Shown: positions 4,264 to 15,482 of the stretch, piece by piece
Layout: each line of letters opens with the position of its first letter
How positions within the stretch are numbered: position 1 is the first letter of the stretch
Source: Eubacterium sp.
Lineage (GTDB): Bacteria; Bacillota_A; Clostridia; Lachnospirales; Lachnospiraceae
Direction of reading: 5' to 3'
DNA length: 19,267 bases
Assembly: GCA_023663915.1 (NCBI GenBank)
Contig: JAMPGN010000062.1
Location: 1-19,267, forward strand
Notes under the pieces: model-generated
The model's database searches: none
What the model was told of the DNA's origin: nothing
What the model saw: only the letters and a program-made list of their open reading frames with translations
Program-made: the position numbers and the translations under genes

Positions 4264-5706
4264 CTACTCAAATGCAGATTTAAAAAAATCTTCCTTCTTC
4301 AATAACGCAGGAATATAGCTTCTTAACACTTCAAGATACTGATACTCATATCCTTTCATCTCTATATACCCCTTCGCTGAATCTGCTCCCACATTAACGA
4401 CTCTTCTTGCATCATTGGCGATTGATGTAATTTTATTACTCATTTCAATATAGGTCTTTGTATTTTTTTGATCTATGAATAGCACTTCTAAATGCTTGTT
4501 CACCTCAAATATCAAATCTGGGTTATCTTCACTGGCATTTTGAACAGCAAAAGGAAGAACTCCCTCCGCTTCAAGCATAATGTCCGAAATACCATTTTCA
4601 CCATTTATATAGTTAAGATCTATTCCCGGCTGAACATTGTAACAATATCTATTGAAACAGATTCCAGCCCCAGAATCTTCCACGGAATACGCTTCTAACT
4701 GAACTCCCGAAGCGAGTTTATTATCCCCTTTGTAAATTGGTGTAGCACGATATAAAACATGGTTATTGGTTTCCCAAATGTATTCCGCCACATCATCTTC
4801 AAATGATTTCATCCCATCTATATTCAAGTATCGCGTACCCGTAATAAGATTTATTTCACTATCCTCTCCGACGAGTTGATGCGCAATCAAGTGACATCTG
4901 TTATACAAATATGGAGGATTTGAATTTACAAATCCCGAATATTTATTTTGGTTCCATCCAGAAGGCTTGATCATTCCAATATCCTGTCTGGAATTACTTG
5001 GCGGCATAATATCCGGACCAATATTCGCGATTGCTACGCCTGCTCTTCCCAGTTTATCTAATTGACTAAATTCACAAAAAGACGCGGTACTCTTTTTCTG
5101 ACTTGCTGAAAATGACGGCTTGTCACCGTTAATAATAATAGATGCCTTCCCAGTATAGGAAGGAACCATCTTTCCGTTCATATTGACTTCTGTTTCATTC
5201 GGACTGTCTGCTAAATAGTCCGAAAGAATATGCGAATAGTAAAGCAGCGCCGCAAAACTATCACATTTTTCACCGCCACTTCTGAACCAGTTATTAAGCA
5301 CACCAAAATCAAAGACCTTATTAACCGTATCCTGTAATAATTCTTTTCTTTCTTCCTGCTCCTTTTCCACAGTTTGGCTTTTATATTCCCAACTATTGTG
5401 TGAGCATTCCAGCAACTCATCTTCCTTTACGTCTAATTTGAAAAGTTTTGGAATACTCGATACCCCTTCAACCTTTAAATAATCAAGCTTCTCCTGTCCT
5501 CTCCCATCTGACTGCTCACTACACAGATAAAGTGCATTCATAAGCATTTTTACATTTTTATCTGTTTCATTTATTGGATTATTACCAAACAATATCTGCA
5601 CTACATAGGTATTTGTCTGCTCTTCATCACAGGCAAATGCTGTCGTTCCATGAACAGAAAACAATAGAATTATCGCCAATAAAGAAGCGAGCAAACGTTT
5701 TCTCAT
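4264..5706 (-). CDS. Secreted DNA/RNA non-specific endonuclease (EndA/NucA type)
   Basis: This 480-aa protein is predicted to be exported and to cut nucleic acids. A signal peptide (residues 1-25: basic start, LLASLLAIILLF core, AFA cleavage site) leads. The beta-beta-alpha metal nuclease domain spans about 180-365: NRCHLIAHQLVGE (269-281) stands at the D-R-G-H catalytic box with H272 as the general base, and the metal-ligand asparagine would be N286 in NLITGTRYLN. The glycine of the usual box is cysteine here. NHVLYRATPIYKGDN and VQLEAYSVED continue the fold. The region before it (about 30-175) carries YYSHILSDYLAD, and a further 110 residues follow the nuclease; I recognise neither. It is last in a three-frame chain: its ATG overlaps the previous stop as ATGA, with AAAGGG upstream. 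Roles could be DNA scavenging, biofilm DNA cleavage or attack on neighbours; no immunity gene is obvious. Confidence 0.82.
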   Translation of the reverse strand: MRKRLLASLLAIILLFSVHGTTAFACDEEQTNTYVVQILFGNNPINETDKNVKMLMNALYLCSEQSDGRGQEKLDYLKVEGVSSIPKLFKLDVKEDELLECSHNSWEYKSQTVEKEQEERKELLQDTVNKVFDFGVLNNWFRSGGEKCDSFAALLYYSHILSDYLADSPNETEVNMNGKMVPSYTGKASIIINGDKPSFSASQKKSTASFCEFSQLDKLGRAGVAIANIGPDIMPPSNSRQDIGMIKPSGWNQNKYSGFVNSNPPYLYNRCHLIAHQLVGEDSEINLITGTRYLNIDGMKSFEDDVAEYIWETNNHVLYRATPIYKGDNKLASGVQLEAYSVEDSGAGICFNRYCYNVQPGIDLNYINGENGISDIMLEAEGVLPFAVQNASEDNPDLIFEVNKHLEVLFIDQKNTKTYIEMSNKITSIANDARRVVNVGADSAKGYIEMKGYEYQYLEVLRSYIPALLKKEDFFKSAFE

Positions 5707-6104
5707 TCTTCTACCCTTTCAAAATCGATTCCATTAAATACAAATGCCTTTTTCGCTGCTATAACATCATATTCAAATTCAACATATTCATCAGGTGATT
5801 CTTCCACTGGAATCACCTTTATCGTTACACGATCGCCTACTTGGTATTTATACTTTTTTCCTATTTCACTTTCAAGAGAAACTACAAATTCTGAGCAACT
5901 GGCATCTTTCGGTCTCTTCACATTGGTCACTACCCAATCTTCCATCGCTGTTCCCGTCACTGTCACATTAATAGCAGATCGATCCGTAATACATATCGCC
6001 GGAATAGACAGTTCTCCACCCTCAAATGAAACTTCAATTTCTGCAGCATTGAAACCTGCATGGTTATTCTCAAACCAAAATCTATCATCTAACGCGTGCG
6101 TCAA
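5703..6104 (-). CDS. Beta-rich 133-aa frame, possible C-terminal domain of the lipoprotein
   Basis: I do not recognise the family. The sequence has short alternating hydrophobic strands (EIEVSFEGGELSIPAI, INVTVTGTAMEDWVV, DRVTIKVIPV, EYVEFEYDVI), the look of an Ig-like or similar beta sandwich. It has no signal peptide, which is odd because its neighbours on both sides are exported. The only start at the head of the frame is TTG, which overlaps the TGA stop of the lipoprotein gene (TTGA), with GGTGA about 10 nt upstream. The junction lies in a run of six Ts. One extra T, or a -1 slip on TTT, would join this frame to the lipoprotein as a 732-aa protein. Its own stop overlaps the nuclease ATG. 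So it is either a translationally coupled small protein or the detached domain of its neighbour. Confidence 0.6.
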   Translation of the reverse strand: MTHALDDRFWFENNHAGFNAAEIEVSFEGGELSIPAICITDRSAINVTVTGTAMEDWVVTNVKRPKDASCSEFVVSLESEIGKKYKYQVGDRVTIKVIPVEESPDEYVEFEYDVIAAKKAFVFNGIDFERVEE

Positions 6105-7900
6105 AAAATACTATCACCGTTTTCATGCAAAATGGAACTTATCTTGCTCCGTTCTGCTGAAGAAATATTTCTTTTCTCAGCTAAAGCAAACAGCAAATCG
6201 CAATTCAAATATAACGCCTCGCTAACTGGTGGCAACGCTACCTTGCGTTCTTCCTTGATTAGCTTATTGTATTCCTTGACTTCTTTTTTCTCTCGTTTTG
6301 TAGCGTCTTTGTCAGCTTTTTCCTCCTGTATTTCTGCAAGATATGAATCATTCAATGCTCTCTGTTCATCTACAAGAATGATTACATTATCGAGGGCTAT
6401 TTTATATGCCTTGTCCAAATATAAGGACTCTTTTGTAATGGCATAAAGGTCTAAATATGCCTGAGCCACAAAATACTTAAGACTCCAATCGGCATCTTTT
6501 GTATTTGTGAGAATCTCTGCACAATACTGATCCGTCATCTTAACGTAATCAGATTCGCCCTTAGTTTCCTTCGCCGAAATAATTGCCATCGGAAGAACTG
6601 TTGCATAATCAATATCTTTTCGGAATATGCGTGTAGAAACCGCCTTATACTGATTGATAGCTGCGAGACATTTTTCATACTCATTGGCATTATAATAGTC
6701 TTTTGCAATTTCAAGCCAATACAAGCCAAACTCTTTATAAGTATCCTGATGAGATTCTAACCATGCAATTTTACTGACAAGCTGTGAATCCGGCTTATTC
6801 GACCATAATACAAAACTTTCCACAGATTCTTGATTTAAAGCATGATCCCCCGGCAGATCATAATCCCGTACCATATTGAACATATATGACAAAGCATTCT
6901 TTGTGCTGCTATGTAATTCAGCAGATTCTTCATCATCAAGTTCCCAGCTATTCTGTAAAAATTGAAGATCAGCCTGTGAAGTTGTCGATTTATAACTCGA
7001 AACAAAATCAACTGTCATATAAAGAACAGATGCCGCCGATTTGAGCGCACTACCTGACTGAACCACACTAAGTAATCCCACCGGATTTGGAATCGCCTGT
7101 CTTAATGCTTGGGCACAATTCTGCTCATATATATATTCAAGTCGATCCCTTTTCACGGTGATCATACGATATCCGTCAATCGTATCCATCAAACTGGTAA
7201 TTTGCGCTTGTGTTTTTGTATCGACCGCATTGGGATAAACATCATTAACCAAAGATGAGTATACCGACTCTAAAAAAATCTGATTTCCCTTTGCTTCATT
7301 TATCTCTTGCGTTAAAACAGTCATATAATTCAACATATTTATTGAATTACGCTGCGTTTCCGTTAATGTTTCATCTTCTTCTATATCATAAATATCTTCT
7401 GGCTCTTCAACATCATGAGTCAAAACTTCTTTAGGGAAGGAAACATTTCCTTGTTCTACATTCTTTTCGTCATTGTTGTTGGGAATATTTTTGCCCATAT
7501 TTTTAGGCGTATTATTATTTACCGTTTTCGCGACATCTGCTAATTCTTTATCATCAATTTTCTTATCTTCTTTCGCCATTCCCACATCATCTATTGATCT
7601 CTCATCTTCTATTGATGTCACACTATCAACTGGTTCCTTGTTATCGGAATCATTCTTAGCTTCAACATTATCTACAGAATCATCAATCGCAGTCTCTGTA
7701 ACATCGACTAGTGCAGACGAATTATCTTCTTCCTTCTCATTCTCACTCTGCTCATCAACATCTGGTATAAAAACATCTGCGGAAGCGCTATAAGAAGTCT
7801 CTTCATTTTGAGCCTCGTCGTTAAAAGCACACCCTACTACTGACAACGCCATAAATAAAGCCAACATCAATACAACAAATCTTTTTTCATTTGTCTTCAT
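6101..7900 (-). CDS. Lipoprotein with acidic linker and helical-repeat body
   Basis: This 599-aa protein is unknown by family. It starts with a lipoprotein signal peptide: KTNEKRF, a hydrophobic core VVLMLALFMAL, then the lipobox SVVGC with lipid attachment at Cys24. Residues about 28-180 are low-complexity and rich in Asp, Glu, Ser, Val and Asn, a spacer that would lift the body off the membrane. From about 185 the protein is alpha-helical, with TPR-like pairs around residues 385-500 (YWLEIAKDYYNANEYEKCLAAI, with alternating A/Y/L positions), and ends with a charged coiled-coil stretch (EEKADKDATKREKKEVKE) plus a final helix. RBS GAGGAAAAT precedes the ATG. It leads the tightly overlapping frames 5703-6104 and 4264-5706. 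A role as surface anchor or scaffold for the nuclease is inference from operon structure only. Confidence 0.78.
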   Translation of the reverse strand: MKTNEKRFVVLMLALFMALSVVGCAFNDEAQNEETSYSASADVFIPDVDEQSENEKEEDNSSALVDVTETAIDDSVDNVEAKNDSDNKEPVDSVTSIEDERSIDDVGMAKEDKKIDDKELADVAKTVNNNTPKNMGKNIPNNNDEKNVEQGNVSFPKEVLTHDVEEPEDIYDIEEDETLTETQRNSINMLNYMTVLTQEINEAKGNQIFLESVYSSLVNDVYPNAVDTKTQAQITSLMDTIDGYRMITVKRDRLEYIYEQNCAQALRQAIPNPVGLLSVVQSGSALKSAASVLYMTVDFVSSYKSTTSQADLQFLQNSWELDDEESAELHSSTKNALSYMFNMVRDYDLPGDHALNQESVESFVLWSNKPDSQLVSKIAWLESHQDTYKEFGLYWLEIAKDYYNANEYEKCLAAINQYKAVSTRIFRKDIDYATVLPMAIISAKETKGESDYVKMTDQYCAEILTNTKDADWSLKYFVAQAYLDLYAITKESLYLDKAYKIALDNVIILVDEQRALNDSYLAEIQEEKADKDATKREKKEVKEYNKLIKEERKVALPPVSEALYLNCDLLFALAEKRNISSAERSKISSILHENGDSIF

Positions 7901-8260: not shown

Positions 8261-8881
8261 CTAGCGATTGTTGTACTCTATGCCTATCTTATAGCTGTTT
8301 TTCAAAAAATAATTAGCGGCATCATGCAAATCTTTTAATTTTTCTGCCTTATTATTTTTATCGACAGCTTCATTAAAAAGAGCGATCGCTTTTTTCCAGT
8401 CATATTTCTTGCTTTTAACCAAATAAGATATGCTACCTAAATTTGTTACAACTACCATCATTTTTACACTATCATATCTCAATAAAAATTGCACGTCTGT
8501 CAAAGAAAAATCTGACAATGACGGATGGTTATGCAATACAATAAGCACACACTCTTTAGTAGAAGCAATCAAATGATATGCTGTCGTATCACTCAATGGA
8601 TCCACATTATGCTCATCGCCAAATGTAATAGCGATATATCTTTCTCCCTGTTCAATTAATTCGGCACTGTCAAGGCTATACGTTATTGCCACTTCATTAG
8701 AATCGTTTTCTTCTTTCGATATCTTCAAAATATTTTTTGCTAAATCCCAAAGATTATCATATTCACTTTCTGGTATCTCTCTATACTTTATTCTTGGAAT
8801 CTTATTTATGGCCTCTTCTGTAATTATAATCTTATGATCACGTTTCTTTGCCATTTCAAGTTCATATAAGTTATGGTTCAT
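8261..8881 (-). CDS. JAB/MPN (JAMM-motif) domain protein, RadC-like
   Basis: This 206-aa cytoplasmic protein carries a JAMM zinc motif: HNHP at residues 117-120 with SLTD at 126-129 (H117, H119 and D129 as ligands), and a likely acidic residue upstream in SNEVAITYS (E63). The core VLIVLHNHPSLSDFSLTDVQ and the strand MMVVVTNLG match the MPN fold seen in RadC and in deubiquitinase-like metallopeptidases. The H-x-H-P to S-x-x-D gap is one residue shorter than in RadC. The N-terminal 55 and C-terminal 45 residues are unfamiliar. No ubiquitin-like or E1/E2-like gene is nearby, so the substrate is unknown. It has the small 56-aa gene directly downstream and a TTGAGA-N17-TATAAT promoter about 220 nt upstream. 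An internal ATG at codon 10 is a possible alternative start. Confidence 0.75.
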   Translation of the reverse strand: MNHNLYELEMAKKRDHKIIITEEAINKIPRIKYREIPESEYDNLWDLAKNILKISKEENDSNEVAITYSLDSAELIEQGERYIAITFGDEHNVDPLSDTTAYHLIASTKECVLIVLHNHPSLSDFSLTDVQFLLRYDSVKMMVVVTNLGSISYLVKSKKYDWKKAIALFNEAVDKNNKAEKLKDLHDAANYFLKNSYKIGIEYNNR

Positions 8882-9190: not shown

Positions 9191-11611
9191 TCATATGCTC
9201 TCTATGATTTCATACCCCATACTGCGATAGCCCCTGCTCCGCTTTCCATACATCTTCATTGCCATCTCAATCTTCGTATCAAGGTAATCATAAATACGTA
9301 CTTCCTTTTTCTCATGATACTCTCGATGTAGACGCCCCGCATATTGTTTCACCCGTCCGCTCCATGAGATCGGCAATGTCAAAAACAAGGTGTCTAAAAT
9401 CGGATAATCAAATCCCTCTCCAATATACTTGCTTGTTGCAATAATAACTCTGCGTGAATCTTCAGAAAGATTTTGTAGCTCGTTCATAACCGCTTCTCTT
9501 TCCTTCTTTTTTAATCCGCCATACAACTTGAAAACCTGCACATATGGGGAAAGCTCTTTTTCAAGCAGTTCCATATGTTCTGTTCGCTCTGTCAGAATAA
9601 TCGGATAGCGGTTCTCGTCCAGACAATTTCTAACATCCATCACGATCTGCATATTCCGAACCGTACTGCCAGATAAATAATCATACAGTTCGTTCGTCGT
9701 ATATTCATCTTTCAAATGATCGGCTGCAATCCCTGTTTCCTGCACAAAGACTTTGTGTTCCAGATCGCTTGCAACCTTGGACAAATCCTTATAACATACC
9801 GGTCCAAGCTGCATAAGCACAATCCTTTCTTTCCCATCTTTGCGCTTTAACGTGGCAGTCAGCCCGTACTTATATTTTGCGGGACTCGTCTTAAGAATCT
9901 GCTCAAATCCTACCGCAGATACATGATGACACTCGTCACATATGATTTGCCCATATCCTTTCACCAGCTCCGAAACCTTGTTATCTCTATATAGACTCTG
10001 ACTTACCGCCACATCAATTCTTCCAGTTGGACTTTTCTTCCCGCCGCCTATCATCCCAATCTCCTTTTTCGAAAGATTAAGAAATACCGCCAACCGTTCA
10101 CACCACTGATTCAACAGACTCACCCGATCCACGATAATCAGAGTATTGACCTTTCGCTCCGCAATCAAGGCAATGGCAGTTATTGTTTTTCCAAAAGCAG
10201 TATTGGCATGTAAAATCCCGCCTGTCACAACCAGCATTTCTTCCACAGCTTTTACCTGTTTTTCCCTCAAATCACCATGAAAACTAACATCTATAGGTTG
10301 CCCTGCGAAACGCTTATCCACACTCTCTACTCTGATCTGGTAGCTGTCGCAGATTGCTCTCAAAGTTGTTTCGAGTCCAATTGGAAGCATCAGATAATCT
10401 GTATCTTCATCAAAACACTGAATCCACATTGGAATATCCTGAACGCTTTTTCTTAAATTACGCGCCAGATAATACTCCGGATTGTGGAATACCGTCATTC
10501 CGATCAGTTTCTTTTTCAAAAAAGAATGTAATTTTGCTTTCGGAATATATATTTTATCATAAAGGACAATGTCTATGTAATCCGGCAAATCCTTTGGTAT
10601 CTTTTCTTCTTTTTTCTTTTCCCATGGAAGCGTCTTATCTTCTTCCTCAATTTCTCTGTCATTCACATCTTCCAGAATGACATCGGGAAACATTTTTAGC
10701 GCATGAACAATCTCTGTTCTGCTGTATCGTCGAATATTCTGTAATACAGCGGTCTGACTTGCATACATATGAAATGTATCGTCCACAAAAACACTGTTTT
10801 CTTTTTCTACTGACTGACGCTGTAAGGGCAACGCAATCAAGTTTCCATAGCCGCCTTTCGGCATATGATCTTGATTCGGAAACAGCCGGTCAAACGACTC
10901 AAATTTTGAATTTCCAGCTCTGTTCATCGCCGTTTCAAGAACTTTTATACCGAGCTTTCTGGCAATATGCGCCTCAATCTGCTCACTAAAAAACACCCAT
11001 AGATGCCCGCCATTACCAGAACGCGACCGTTCCATGTAACTATCAATTCCATACTCTTTGAAAATTGATTTCGCTGATAAGATTTCATCCTGCCAGCCTG
11101 TTTTATCAAAATCGATCGCAAGAAATCTGCACATTTCATTTTCAAGCAACGGATATATTCCCATAACAAGAGCATTTCTTCCAGTTCCCATAAAATGTCG
11201 CTGCACAAAGCTGTCTGTAATCTCCTGATTCTCCCGATAAGCACAGTTTTTACATGCACCTTTTATCTTATGCGACTTCCCACAAATATCCCACTCCCAC
11301 TCATTTTTGCATTTCGGTGCATATCCATGCACTCCGGTCTTTTCATTCTCCCATCGGACTGCAAAAACATCCTGCCTTCCGTAAAATAAATCTCTGTATA
11401 ATGCGATCAGTTCCGGCATTTCCAATCGCTTGTCCGTCTGGTTTAAATGATCTGTTTCGCGATTTGACATATCTATTTGAGGAATTTTCGCGGAACAGCT
11501 TTCTTTGATTCGCGCCCATTCATCGTAAATTAACTGTTCTGCAGCATCCACTGTAATATTCTTGTCCAGTGATTTGATATATGAGATAAACTGTTCTTTC
11601 CAATGAGTCAT
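9191..11611 (-). CDS. TOTE-type primase fused to SF2 DEAD/DEAH helicase
   Basis: This 806-aa protein fuses two enzymes. The N-terminal half (about 65-310) is an archaeo-eukaryotic-type primase domain of the 'TOTE conflict system' class: cysteines C101, C110, C120 and C123 form a likely zinc knuckle, DFD at 167-169 gives catalytic acids, SGNGGH (198-203) and DRLFPNQD (241-248) are the conserved nucleotide-binding and core motifs. The C-terminal half (about 440-790) is a superfamily 2 helicase: Walker A ANTAFGKT (469-476), DECH (559-562), TAT (585-587) and QYAGRLHR (756-763). A linker of about 130 residues sits between. All key residues are present, so it should be active. Such proteins are predicted to act in conflict with foreign DNA; the exact role is unproven. 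RBS AAGGAG lies 7 nt before the ATG, and the gene follows the transcarbamylase by 31 nt. Confidence 0.87.
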   Translation of the reverse strand: MTHWKEQFISYIKSLDKNITVDAAEQLIYDEWARIKESCSAKIPQIDMSNRETDHLNQTDKRLEMPELIALYRDLFYGRQDVFAVRWENEKTGVHGYAPKCKNEWEWDICGKSHKIKGACKNCAYRENQEITDSFVQRHFMGTGRNALVMGIYPLLENEMCRFLAIDFDKTGWQDEILSAKSIFKEYGIDSYMERSRSGNGGHLWVFFSEQIEAHIARKLGIKVLETAMNRAGNSKFESFDRLFPNQDHMPKGGYGNLIALPLQRQSVEKENSVFVDDTFHMYASQTAVLQNIRRYSRTEIVHALKMFPDVILEDVNDREIEEEDKTLPWEKKKEEKIPKDLPDYIDIVLYDKIYIPKAKLHSFLKKKLIGMTVFHNPEYYLARNLRKSVQDIPMWIQCFDEDTDYLMLPIGLETTLRAICDSYQIRVESVDKRFAGQPIDVSFHGDLREKQVKAVEEMLVVTGGILHANTAFGKTITAIALIAERKVNTLIIVDRVSLLNQWCERLAVFLNLSKKEIGMIGGGKKSPTGRIDVAVSQSLYRDNKVSELVKGYGQIICDECHHVSAVGFEQILKTSPAKYKYGLTATLKRKDGKERIVLMQLGPVCYKDLSKVASDLEHKVFVQETGIAADHLKDEYTTNELYDYLSGSTVRNMQIVMDVRNCLDENRYPIILTERTEHMELLEKELSPYVQVFKLYGGLKKKEREAVMNELQNLSEDSRRVIIATSKYIGEGFDYPILDTLFLTLPISWSGRVKQYAGRLHREYHEKKEVRIYDYLDTKIEMAMKMYGKRSRGYRSMGYEIIESI

Positions 11612-14374: not shown

Positions 14375-14458
14375 TTATTTCTCGTTGTATCTCCAAAGGC
14401 TTTATACTCCATCCCATTCGTACAAAAGTTCCTTTATCAGTTCATCTAACTTACTCAT
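14375..14458 (-). pseudogene. hsdS: N-terminal remnant of type I restriction specificity subunit hsdS
   Basis: On the minus strand an ATG at 14458 overlaps the last 8 nt of rhuM and begins MSKLDELIKEL, the standard start of Firmicute HsdS proteins. The next codons run to an early stop, but removing one T from the TTTT run (14423-14426) restores LCTNGMEYKAFGDTTRN, which matches the usual continuation L-C-P-N-G-V-E-Y-K. After about 28 codons the sequence runs into the convergent acetyltransferase gene and homology ends. Only the head of the gene remains, with a 1-nt frameshift. Recognition is from memory of the family's N-terminus. Confidence 0.75.
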
Positions 14459-15482
14459 TTTTCATCATCTCTTTTCCAAGCACTTCTTTCACCATCTCAT
14501 CAAAATCCGAATGAATGATTTGCGTTTTGTTAAAAATGTCATACTCAGCCTGTGCTTTCTTCCAAGCATCCTGCCTTGAAATTTTGCCCTTACTCTCTTC
14601 TGGCAGTATTTCATATCTGCGAAATGCCAAAAATTCATTTACACTAGATGCAAATTCCTCCATAGTGAATGTATTTTCTCTTTCAATCAAATCTTCTATA
14701 TAGTCAAAATAACCTGTTACCGCCCTCTCTAACTGACGGATCTGCTTTTCATCCAGATAATTCTTTGCCACAGTGACATCCGACTTCAAGATACGTCCAT
14801 CTGGGGAATTCTTCCATGTTGTCAGCCCCATATTCTCTTTTTCATGGTCTGCTCCATGATAAATAATCTCCGCCGCTGTATGCTTCGTAATCGCATAATG
14901 AAACTTATTCTGAACCATCGCATAAAACGCTTTCGTAACTGGAGAATCCTTATCATAATCAATGCTACATTCTGCAAAAATATCTGTAATCTGCTGCCAA
15001 ATTCTGCGTTCGCTCGCACGAATAGAACGAACTCGTTCCAACAGTTCTTTAAAATAATCTTTTCCGAACACTGTTTTTCCTTGCTTTAGGCGTTCGTCGT
15101 CCAAAGCAAATCCTTTGATCATATATTCTTTTAATACTCCGGTAGCCCATTTACGAAACTGAGTTGCACGCTTGGAGTCAACTCGATATCCTACAGATAT
15201 AATAGCATCCAAATTATAATAATTTGTTAGCGATAACTGTTCTTTTCCCTCGATTGCTCCATGTTTTGTGGGTATTGCAATTTTTGCAACAACCACTTTT
15301 TCATCCAATTCCCCACTTTCAAAAATTTTTTTCAAATGTCGGCTTATTCCTGATTTGTCTATTCCAAACAATTCTGCCATAGATTTTTGTGTCAGCCATA
15401 TTGTTTCATCTTTAATAACCGCATTAACGGAAACATCATCTTCCTCTGCCTTATATATTAAAAAATCAAAATTTTTTATCAT
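14451..15482 (-). CDS. rhuM: RhuM family protein
   Basis: This 343-aa protein is of the RhuM family (named from a Salmonella pathogenicity-island gene), widely found inside type I restriction-modification operons. The helix-turn-helix-like N-terminus WLTQKSMAELFGIDKSGISR (30-48) is followed by the family's LTNYYNLDAIISVGYRVDSK and RATQFRKWATGVLKEYMIKG (about 85-125), complete to the normal C-terminus. A perfect GGAGGTGA site precedes the ATG. The molecular role is not established; it may modulate restriction. Here the partners are gone: the hsdM tail upstream and hsdS head downstream are remnants, each overlapping rhuM by a few bases, so rhuM is an intact orphan. Confidence 0.9.
   Translation of the reverse strand: MIKNFDFLIYKAEEDDVSVNAVIKDETIWLTQKSMAELFGIDKSGISRHLKKIFESGELDEKVVVAKIAIPTKHGAIEGKEQLSLTNYYNLDAIISVGYRVDSKRATQFRKWATGVLKEYMIKGFALDDERLKQGKTVFGKDYFKELLERVRSIRASERRIWQQITDIFAECSIDYDKDSPVTKAFYAMVQNKFHYAITKHTAAEIIYHGADHEKENMGLTTWKNSPDGRILKSDVTVAKNYLDEKQIRQLERAVTGYFDYIEDLIERENTFTMEEFASSVNEFLAFRRYEILPEESKGKISRQDAWKKAQAEYDIFNKTQIIHSDFDEMVKEVLGKEMMKNE

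What the first reader, a model, noticed from the sequence alone, without database searches (positions are those of the whole stretch)
4264..7900. Uncharacterised surface nuclease module: lipoprotein, beta-rich frame, secreted nuclease
Three frames overlap by 4 nt each: a lipoprotein with a long acidic spacer and helical-repeat body, a 133-aa beta-rich frame, and an EndA/NucA-type exported nuclease with unfamiliar N- and C-terminal extensions. The overlaps mean the products are made together. A lipid-anchored scaffold beside an exported nuclease could make a surface-bound DNA-degrading complex (scavenging, biofilm or interbacterial). The overlaps and motifs are seen; the joint function is inference. 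No immunity-like gene is recognised.
Basis: partly seen in the sequence, partly recalled or inferred. Interest (0 to 1): 0.75.

Follow-up and report, generated by a model that had tools for sequence, protein, structure and literature searches.

The report
Two-gene surface module with inserted nuclease
Gut and rumen bacteria carry an undescribed pair of secreted-protein genes, and in some lineages a DNA-cutting enzyme sits spliced into the middle of the second protein; the supposed third gene in this window is really the broken-off end of the first.

Summary
Two of the three frames are real genes. The 133-aa "beta-rich frame" is the C-terminal domain of the lipoprotein, cut off by a frame break in a run of T near 6101-6110: 20 of 20 aligned relatives carry it in one continuous frame. 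The true unit is lipoprotein plus partner with an ATGA overlap. The partner follows the lipoprotein in 29 of 34 genome loci; no other gene family is shared by more than 5 of 35 loci. The partner has two forms: long (as here), with an EndA/Spd1-type PF13930 nuclease, and short, with the same two halves and no nuclease (17 of 29 loci). So the "unfamiliar extensions" are the conserved core and the nuclease is a cassette inside it. The short core is predicted all-alpha (pLDDT 92); members scanned matched no curated family and no fold at E<=0.001. H30, D68, H104 and R105 are invariant in 19 of 19 short forms and absent from 130 of 130 long forms, which keep H109, W112, R126, H171 and D175. The lipoprotein is TPR-like plus beta sandwich. 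Best reading: a mobile envelope two-component module that gained a tethered DNase; purpose unknown.

The parts
6104..7900 (-). Lipoprotein gene, main part (599 aa): signal peptide with lipobox Cys24, acidic low-complexity spacer (about residues 25-175), conserved helical body (about 176-599) whose last part looks like TPR repeats
6101..6110 (-). Run of T in which the lipoprotein frame breaks
   Evidence: sequence; 20 of 20 aligned relatives have one continuous frame
5703..6104 (-).
   Evidence: aligned to lipoprotein C-termini; strands in the model of the relative L004; divergence ratio
5703..5706 (-). ATGA overlap of lipoprotein stop and partner start
   Evidence: spacing in 29 relatives -29 to +4 nt, 11 of 29 exactly 4 nt overlap
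5185..5631 (-). Partner core, N-terminal half (about residues 26-174), predicted all-alpha from the short form; keeps H103, W106, R120, Y157, H159, D163
   Evidence: short-form-only profile A3 matches the N-half of 7 complete long forms at E 1.2e-29 to 8.6e-35; residues
4558..5184 (-). Inserted beta-beta-alpha-metal (EndA/Spd1/streptodornase-type, PF13930) nuclease domain, about residues 175-383; putative catalytic His272 and metal Asn295
   Evidence: PF13930 5.4e-18; PDB profile hits 5fgw 5.1e-20, 2xgr 2.5e-11, 3owv 1.4e-6; H272, N286 and N295 in 130 of 130 long forms; absent from short forms
4264..4557 (-). Partner core, C-terminal half (about residues 384-480), predicted alpha-helical from the short form, and stop codon
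   Evidence: A3 matches the C-halves of the same 7 long forms at E 8.8e-13 to 3.0e-17

Best explanation
This is the nuclease-bearing form of an undescribed two-gene envelope module. Gene 1 encodes a secreted, usually lipid-anchored protein with a TPR-like superhelix and a C-terminal beta sandwich. Gene 2 encodes a secreted, mostly helical partner whose start overlaps or nearly touches the end of gene 1. In one lineage an EndA/Spd1-type nuclease domain was inserted into the partner, in the variable stretch that follows its conserved YYxHxxxD helix, and the partner's own invariant polar set was partly dismantled. Shown by calls: two-gene unit, two partner forms, insertion position, absence of H30/D68/H104/R105, nuclease family and its key residues. 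Inferred: that the lipoprotein holds the partner through its TPR-like surface, so that the long form makes a DNase tethered at the cell surface; that it cuts DNA outside the cell (eDNA or DNA arriving from phage or other cells), which would explain the lack of an immunity gene; and that the short-form core is a metal-dependent hydrolase whose job the nuclease took over or changed. In this window the lipoprotein frame is broken, so this copy may be crippled or mis-assembled.
For: Adjacency in 29 of 34 loci and no third gene shared by more than 5 of 35. The short-form profile finds both halves of 7 of 7 complete long forms with a gap of about 200 aa between them. No nuclease in 17 of 17 intact short forms aligned. 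Long and short partners separate in the core tree with support 100, and short-form lipoproteins (with the partnerless L021) group with support 97. Inserted and free-standing nuclease domains separate with support 93. Correlated divergence r=0.784. PF13930 and PDB matches. H30, D68, H104, R105: 19 of 19 short, 0 of 130 long. TPR-like model. Phage carriage of the short form beside DUF2800, Enc34 ssDNA-binding protein and DNA polymerase A (L036).
Confidence: 0.62

Rival explanations
1. Shared transcript only: the partner is a free secreted DNase for scavenging nucleotides from extracellular DNA, and the lipoprotein does a separate job.
For: Relatives of the same nuclease domain occur in other exported proteins without the lipoprotein and elsewhere in three of eight carrier genomes; where record titles name a source the hosts are mostly gut or rumen bacteria.
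Against: In the one sample searched by the core, 9 of 11 genomes have the lipoprotein right beside it (the other two hits are at a contig start or on another contig), and the two proteins diverge together.
Confidence: 0.2
2. The ancestral partner had the nuclease, and the short forms lost it.
For: The trees are unrooted; long and short each form one side.
Against: Short forms have longer branches and a wider spread of host families, and keep the invariant set that long forms lack; the nuclease domain has abundant relatives elsewhere; L011, a broken short-form locus, branches among the long-form loci near the boundary of the lipoprotein tree.
Confidence: 0.12
3. Antibacterial toxin of the polymorphic or T7SS (EsaD/YeeF) kind delivered to neighbours.
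For: PF13930 is the toxin domain listed for EsaD/EssD, YeeF and RhsA (PMC9990079, passages seen).
Against: Signal peptide at the N-terminus, no LXG/WXG/RHS or other delivery domain in Pfam, no conserved immunity-like neighbour, nuclease in the middle and not at the C-terminus.
Confidence: 0.05
4. Superinfection-exclusion or DNA-entry barrier at the cell surface carried by phages and other mobile elements.
For: Patchy (lipoprotein in 1 of 291 of the class sample, the centre itself, and in 8 of 348 of one family sample; partner in 11 of 200 of another); short form inside a phage replication region (L036); export; no immunity gene.
Against: Only 2 viral contigs found by the lipoprotein scan, none in the phage or plasmid records; no PADLOC match for six relatives.
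Confidence: 0.2
5. Three-gene operon with a separate 133-aa protein, as first read.
For: The frames do overlap by 4 nt and TTGA is a possible restart site.
Against: 20 of 20 aligned relatives have it as the lipoprotein's C-terminus; no free relative found.
Confidence: 0.03

Closest known systems
EndA / NucA (GBS) / Spd1 / streptodornase SdaD2, beta-beta-alpha-metal DNA/RNA non-specific nucleases (PF13930, His-Me finger)
   Same: Catalytic domain: profile match, NRxH-type motif with His aligned to Spd1's NRGH histidine, metal-binding Asn aligned; the NRGH (Spd1) and DRSH (Sda1) variants are stated in PMC4220975 (passages)
   Different: Here the domain sits inside another protein, and the gene is the second of a lipoprotein pair; the known ones are stand-alone (recalled)
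Other exported clostridial-type PF13930-like proteins (L037-L053)
   Same: Closest nuclease domains found outside the family, 45-56% identity
   Different: No core halves seen in 15 frames inspected; many of the complete ones end in a CxxCxP motif instead
EsaD / YeeF / RhsA polymorphic toxins
   Same: Same Pfam nuclease domain (PMC9990079, passages)
   Different: They have delivery domains, a C-terminal toxin and immunity proteins (partly recalled); none found here
TPR proteins and lipoproteins (KLC, LGN, BamD)
   Same: Superhelix predicted for the lipoprotein body
   Different: No sequence match to any solved chain at E<=0.1; extra beta sandwich and, in many, an acidic spacer
Lipocone superfamily (PMC12419801: abstract, passages and sections 5, 7, 11, 12 read)
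   Same: Helical enzymes with a conserved polar pocket, some soluble, used in conflicts
   Different: Their ancestral H/E/D pattern on three consecutive helices does not obviously map on the core's H30, D68, H104/H109, H171-D175; compared by eye only

Membership tests
PF13930 / beta-beta-alpha-metal DRGH-type nuclease | Curated profile score above gathering cut-off | tested here: met
   65.9 bits vs 27; 10 of 10 other long forms scanned also above
PF13930 / beta-beta-alpha-metal DRGH-type nuclease | General-base His and metal-chelating Asn | tested here: met
   H272 and N295 align with His of Spd1 NRGH and the Asn that is Ala in 2xh3; both in 130 of 130 long forms
PF13930 / beta-beta-alpha-metal DRGH-type nuclease | Nuclease activity | not testable with these tools
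   needs protein
Polymorphic / T7SS toxin | Delivery domain (LXG, WXG, RHS, PAAR) | tested here: not met
   no such domain in Pfam scans of the window's and 10 other long forms
Polymorphic / T7SS toxin | Adjacent immunity gene | tested here: inconclusive
   no gene family besides the pair shared by more than 5 of 35 loci; a non-conserved immunity gene is not excluded
TPR superhelix (lipoprotein body) | Fold match to TPR structures clearly above background | tested here: inconclusive
Lipidated surface protein | Lipobox cysteine | tested here: met
   window VVGC; over the 120 listed proteins (window included) 92 lipobox by a crude rule, 26 signal-peptide-like only, 2 none
Zn-dependent phospholipase C / S1-P1-like metal enzymes (short core) | Fold and His/Asp metal site | tested here: inconclusive
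   no PF00882/PF02265 match at E<=5 in the 9 short forms scanned; not among listed fold rows; coordinates were not at hand to measure the cluster
Lipocone superfamily (short core) | His on H2, Glu on H3, Asp on H4 around a cone pocket | tested here: inconclusive
   pattern read in PMC12419801 section 7, compared by eye only
Known anti-phage system | Match to PADLOC models | tested here: not met
   no match for nuclease or 133-aa frame and one weak CARF match (E 0.0077, likely chance) for the window lipoprotein (E<=0.1); none for 6 relatives (E<=0.01)

The most novel reading that the evidence does not exclude
A mobile, partly phage-carried two-component envelope system (TPR-like lipoprotein plus all-alpha metal-dependent enzyme) that acts on material reaching the cell surface. 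In one lineage its enzyme was disarmed at half of its active site and rearmed by insertion of a DNase, so that one anchoring scaffold serves two unrelated chemistries against incoming DNA or phage.
Probability: 0.17. Interest if true: 0.75.

Novelty: new variant of a known kind. Interest (0 to 1): 0.5.

Why it matters
The lipoproteins and short partners scanned matched no Pfam family above its cut-off, no NCBIfam family above its cut-off and no PADLOC model beyond chance, although the pair occurs in Blautia, Butyrivibrio, Ruminococcus, Oribacterium and Christensenella. The two partner forms are a natural experiment: the same scaffold with and without a nuclease, with a defined set of residues that goes with the form. 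That gives a direct test of what the core does (compare short form, long form and site mutants) and of whether surface-tethered DNases guard gut anaerobes against incoming DNA. It also warns that a tidy 'overlapping operon' in a metagenome contig can be a frame break.

Tried and rejected

Ideas dropped: three-gene operon; toxin with conserved immunity gene; Lipocone membership (sections read, not convincing); zinc phospholipase/S1-P1 membership (not shown). The partner was not counted in the G002 family sample because that request did not complete.

Literature: 7 answered searches listed no title that names this pair. That is a search of open PMC text for chosen words, listings and abstract starts only, not proof of absence.

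Full report
What is in the window. On the minus strand there are frames of 599 aa (7900..6101), 133 aa (6104..5703, TTG start) and 480 aa (5706..4264) with 4-nt overlaps. The 599-aa frame begins with a signal peptide ending VVGC and has no Pfam family; the 480-aa frame has PF13930 at 215-340 (E 5.4e-18), and its flanks match nothing.

The middle frame is not a gene. The protein database search listed the best 120 of 708 lipoprotein relatives; 20 chosen from them were aligned with the window. All 20 continue past the window's stop with a domain that is the 133-aa frame. A crude motif finds the continuation in 117 of 119 listed relatives. The search with the 133-aa frame alone found only the window (candidates are limited by length). 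The break lies in a run of T. The tail has diverged no faster than in relatives (ratio 1.51; all 21 sequences 1.45-2.01), so the break is recent or an error of assembly. The lipoprotein gene is also damaged in other loci: split by a 531-aa minus-strand frame in L010, and present only as fragments in L030 and L031.

The pair. A genome scan with the lipoprotein profile gave 34 loci. The gene directly after the lipoprotein is the partner in 29 of 34: 11 long (L001-L010, L032), 17 short, and one short form broken by stops (L011). The five without are L016 (an EcsC-family gene follows), L021 (nothing related follows; none elsewhere in that genome), L028 (contig ends) and the fragments L030 and L031. 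No other gene family (frames of 80 aa or more, BLAST clusters) is shared by more than 5 of the 35 loci, window included. In a family sample around G002, 8 of 348 genomes have the lipoprotein; 7 of those 8 have the partner next to it, 4 long and 3 short, and G424 has none. In a family sample around G014, 11 of 200 have the partner, and 9 of 11 have the lipoprotein next to it; in G720 the partner lies at the start of its contig, and in G746 the two matches are on different contigs. By position four of the eleven are loci above. A class-wide sample gave the lipoprotein in 1 of 291, the centre itself. So the pair is rare, patchy and mostly a unit. Distances of the two proteins correlate over 30 loci (r 0.784; 0 of 9999 permutations reached it); within 11 long forms r is 0.803 (2 of 9999) and within 19 short forms 0.709 (0 of 9999).

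Two forms of the partner. Aligning 12 long (window included) and 17 short partners shows the same N-terminal and C-terminal halves, with about 200 residues between them only in the long form. A profile built from short forms alone (A3) matches the N-half (within profile 1-187) of seven complete long forms at E 1.2e-29 to 8.6e-35 and their C-half (within profile 171-285) at 8.8e-13 to 3.0e-17. The inserted part is the nuclease domain: window residues 183-370 match phrog_36807 at 1.2e-28, and the profile A2 matches streptodornase D 5fgw at 5.1e-20, Spd1 2xgr at 2.5e-11 and EndA 3owv at 1.4e-6. H272 aligns with the histidine of Spd1's NRGH motif (motif named in PMC4220975, passages seen) and N295 with the asparagine that is alanine in 2xh3; both are present in 130 of 130 long forms. 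The same domain occurs in other proteins on viral contigs (17 loci; 15 frames inspected by eye, two identical and three incomplete, none with the core halves) and elsewhere in three of the eight genomes. In a tree of 194 columns the free-standing and inserted domains separate with support 93.

What changed in the core. Over 19 short and 130 long forms (128 distinct; residue numbers of the L029 partner), 15 residues are invariant in the short forms: H30, D68, P90, H104, R105, H109, G111, W112, R126, Y168, Y169, H171, F287, F288 and F292; D175 is in 18 of 19. In the long forms H109, W112, R126, Y169, H171 and D175 are kept in 130 of 130, while H30, D68, H104 and R105 are kept in 0 of 130 (mostly T/S, E/M, L/V and L/I/M) and G111 in 1 of 130. 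Of the 130, 120 are the window and database hits at 55-65% identity to it; the ten from loci are 45-62% identical to it. The long forms are one lineage, so this is one or few events. The pattern looks like a two-part polar site of which one part was given up when the nuclease came in; that is inference.

Trees. The core tree separates long from short with support 100 (266 columns, 30 loci). In the lipoprotein tree the intact short-form loci, with the partnerless L021, group with support 97. The long-form L032 is next to them (56), the broken short-form locus L011 next again (84), and the partnerless L016 lies inside the long-form loci beside L003 (90). The trees are unrooted; insertion is favoured because the domain is abundant elsewhere and the short forms are more diverse, but loss is not excluded.

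Context and spread. Hosts named by the records are mostly Lachnospiraceae and other Clostridia, with Christensenellaceae, Oscillospiraceae and Erysipelotrichaceae; single MAG labels of Chloroflexota, Phocaeicola and an alphaproteobacterial lineage are likely mis-binned or mislabelled contigs (my judgement). Two IMG/VR contigs carry the short form. In L036 it sits beside DUF2800, Enc34 ssDNA-binding protein and DNA polymerase A, a phage replication region; the flanks of L035 were not scanned. No plasmid or phage record matched.

Mechanism. Export of both proteins and close spacing of the genes are read from sequence. The nuclease is very likely active, judged by its kept key residues. That the TPR-like lipoprotein holds the partner, and that the product is a surface DNase, is the best inference; lipidation is not general (92 of 120 with lipobox by a crude rule). 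A nuclease that works outside the producer's cytoplasm needs no immunity gene, which fits. Whether the aim is scavenging or a barrier to phage and mobile DNA is open; I give neither more than about one in three.

Verdict. The pair, and especially the nuclease cassette inside an otherwise conserved core, is not described by the curated libraries searched.

Noticed in passing
window 9191-11611 (-): 806-aa TOTE-type primase-helicase (PF22548 E 1.3e-82 plus ResIII and Helicase_C), with a JAB/RadC-like 206-aa frame (my reading of a HNHPS motif, recalled; no Pfam hit) at 8261-8881 between it and the lipoprotein.
   Followed up: no
window 14451-15482 (-): RhuM-family protein (PF13310 E 1.3e-101), often found on mobile islands (recalled).
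   Followed up: no
L016 1711-4689: The lipoprotein is followed by an EcsC-family gene (PF12787 E 1.7e-14) instead of the partner; its lipoprotein nests among the long-form loci.
   Followed up: partly
L069 3269-13592: In G439 the pair lies among M48 peptidase, TerB, macro-domain and vWA-like genes on the same strand; a similar vWA-like frame lies near the partnerless lipoprotein in L068 (by eye).
   Followed up: no
L010 9767-13773: Lipoprotein gene of Dorea sp. 5-2 split by an inserted minus-strand 531-aa frame, perhaps a transposase (not scanned).
   Followed up: no
L011 11851-12427: Short-form partner broken by stops beside an intact lipoprotein frame.
   Followed up: no
L037-L052: Exported PF13930-like nucleases in viral contigs, many of the complete ones ending in a CxxCxP-type tail.
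   Followed up: partly
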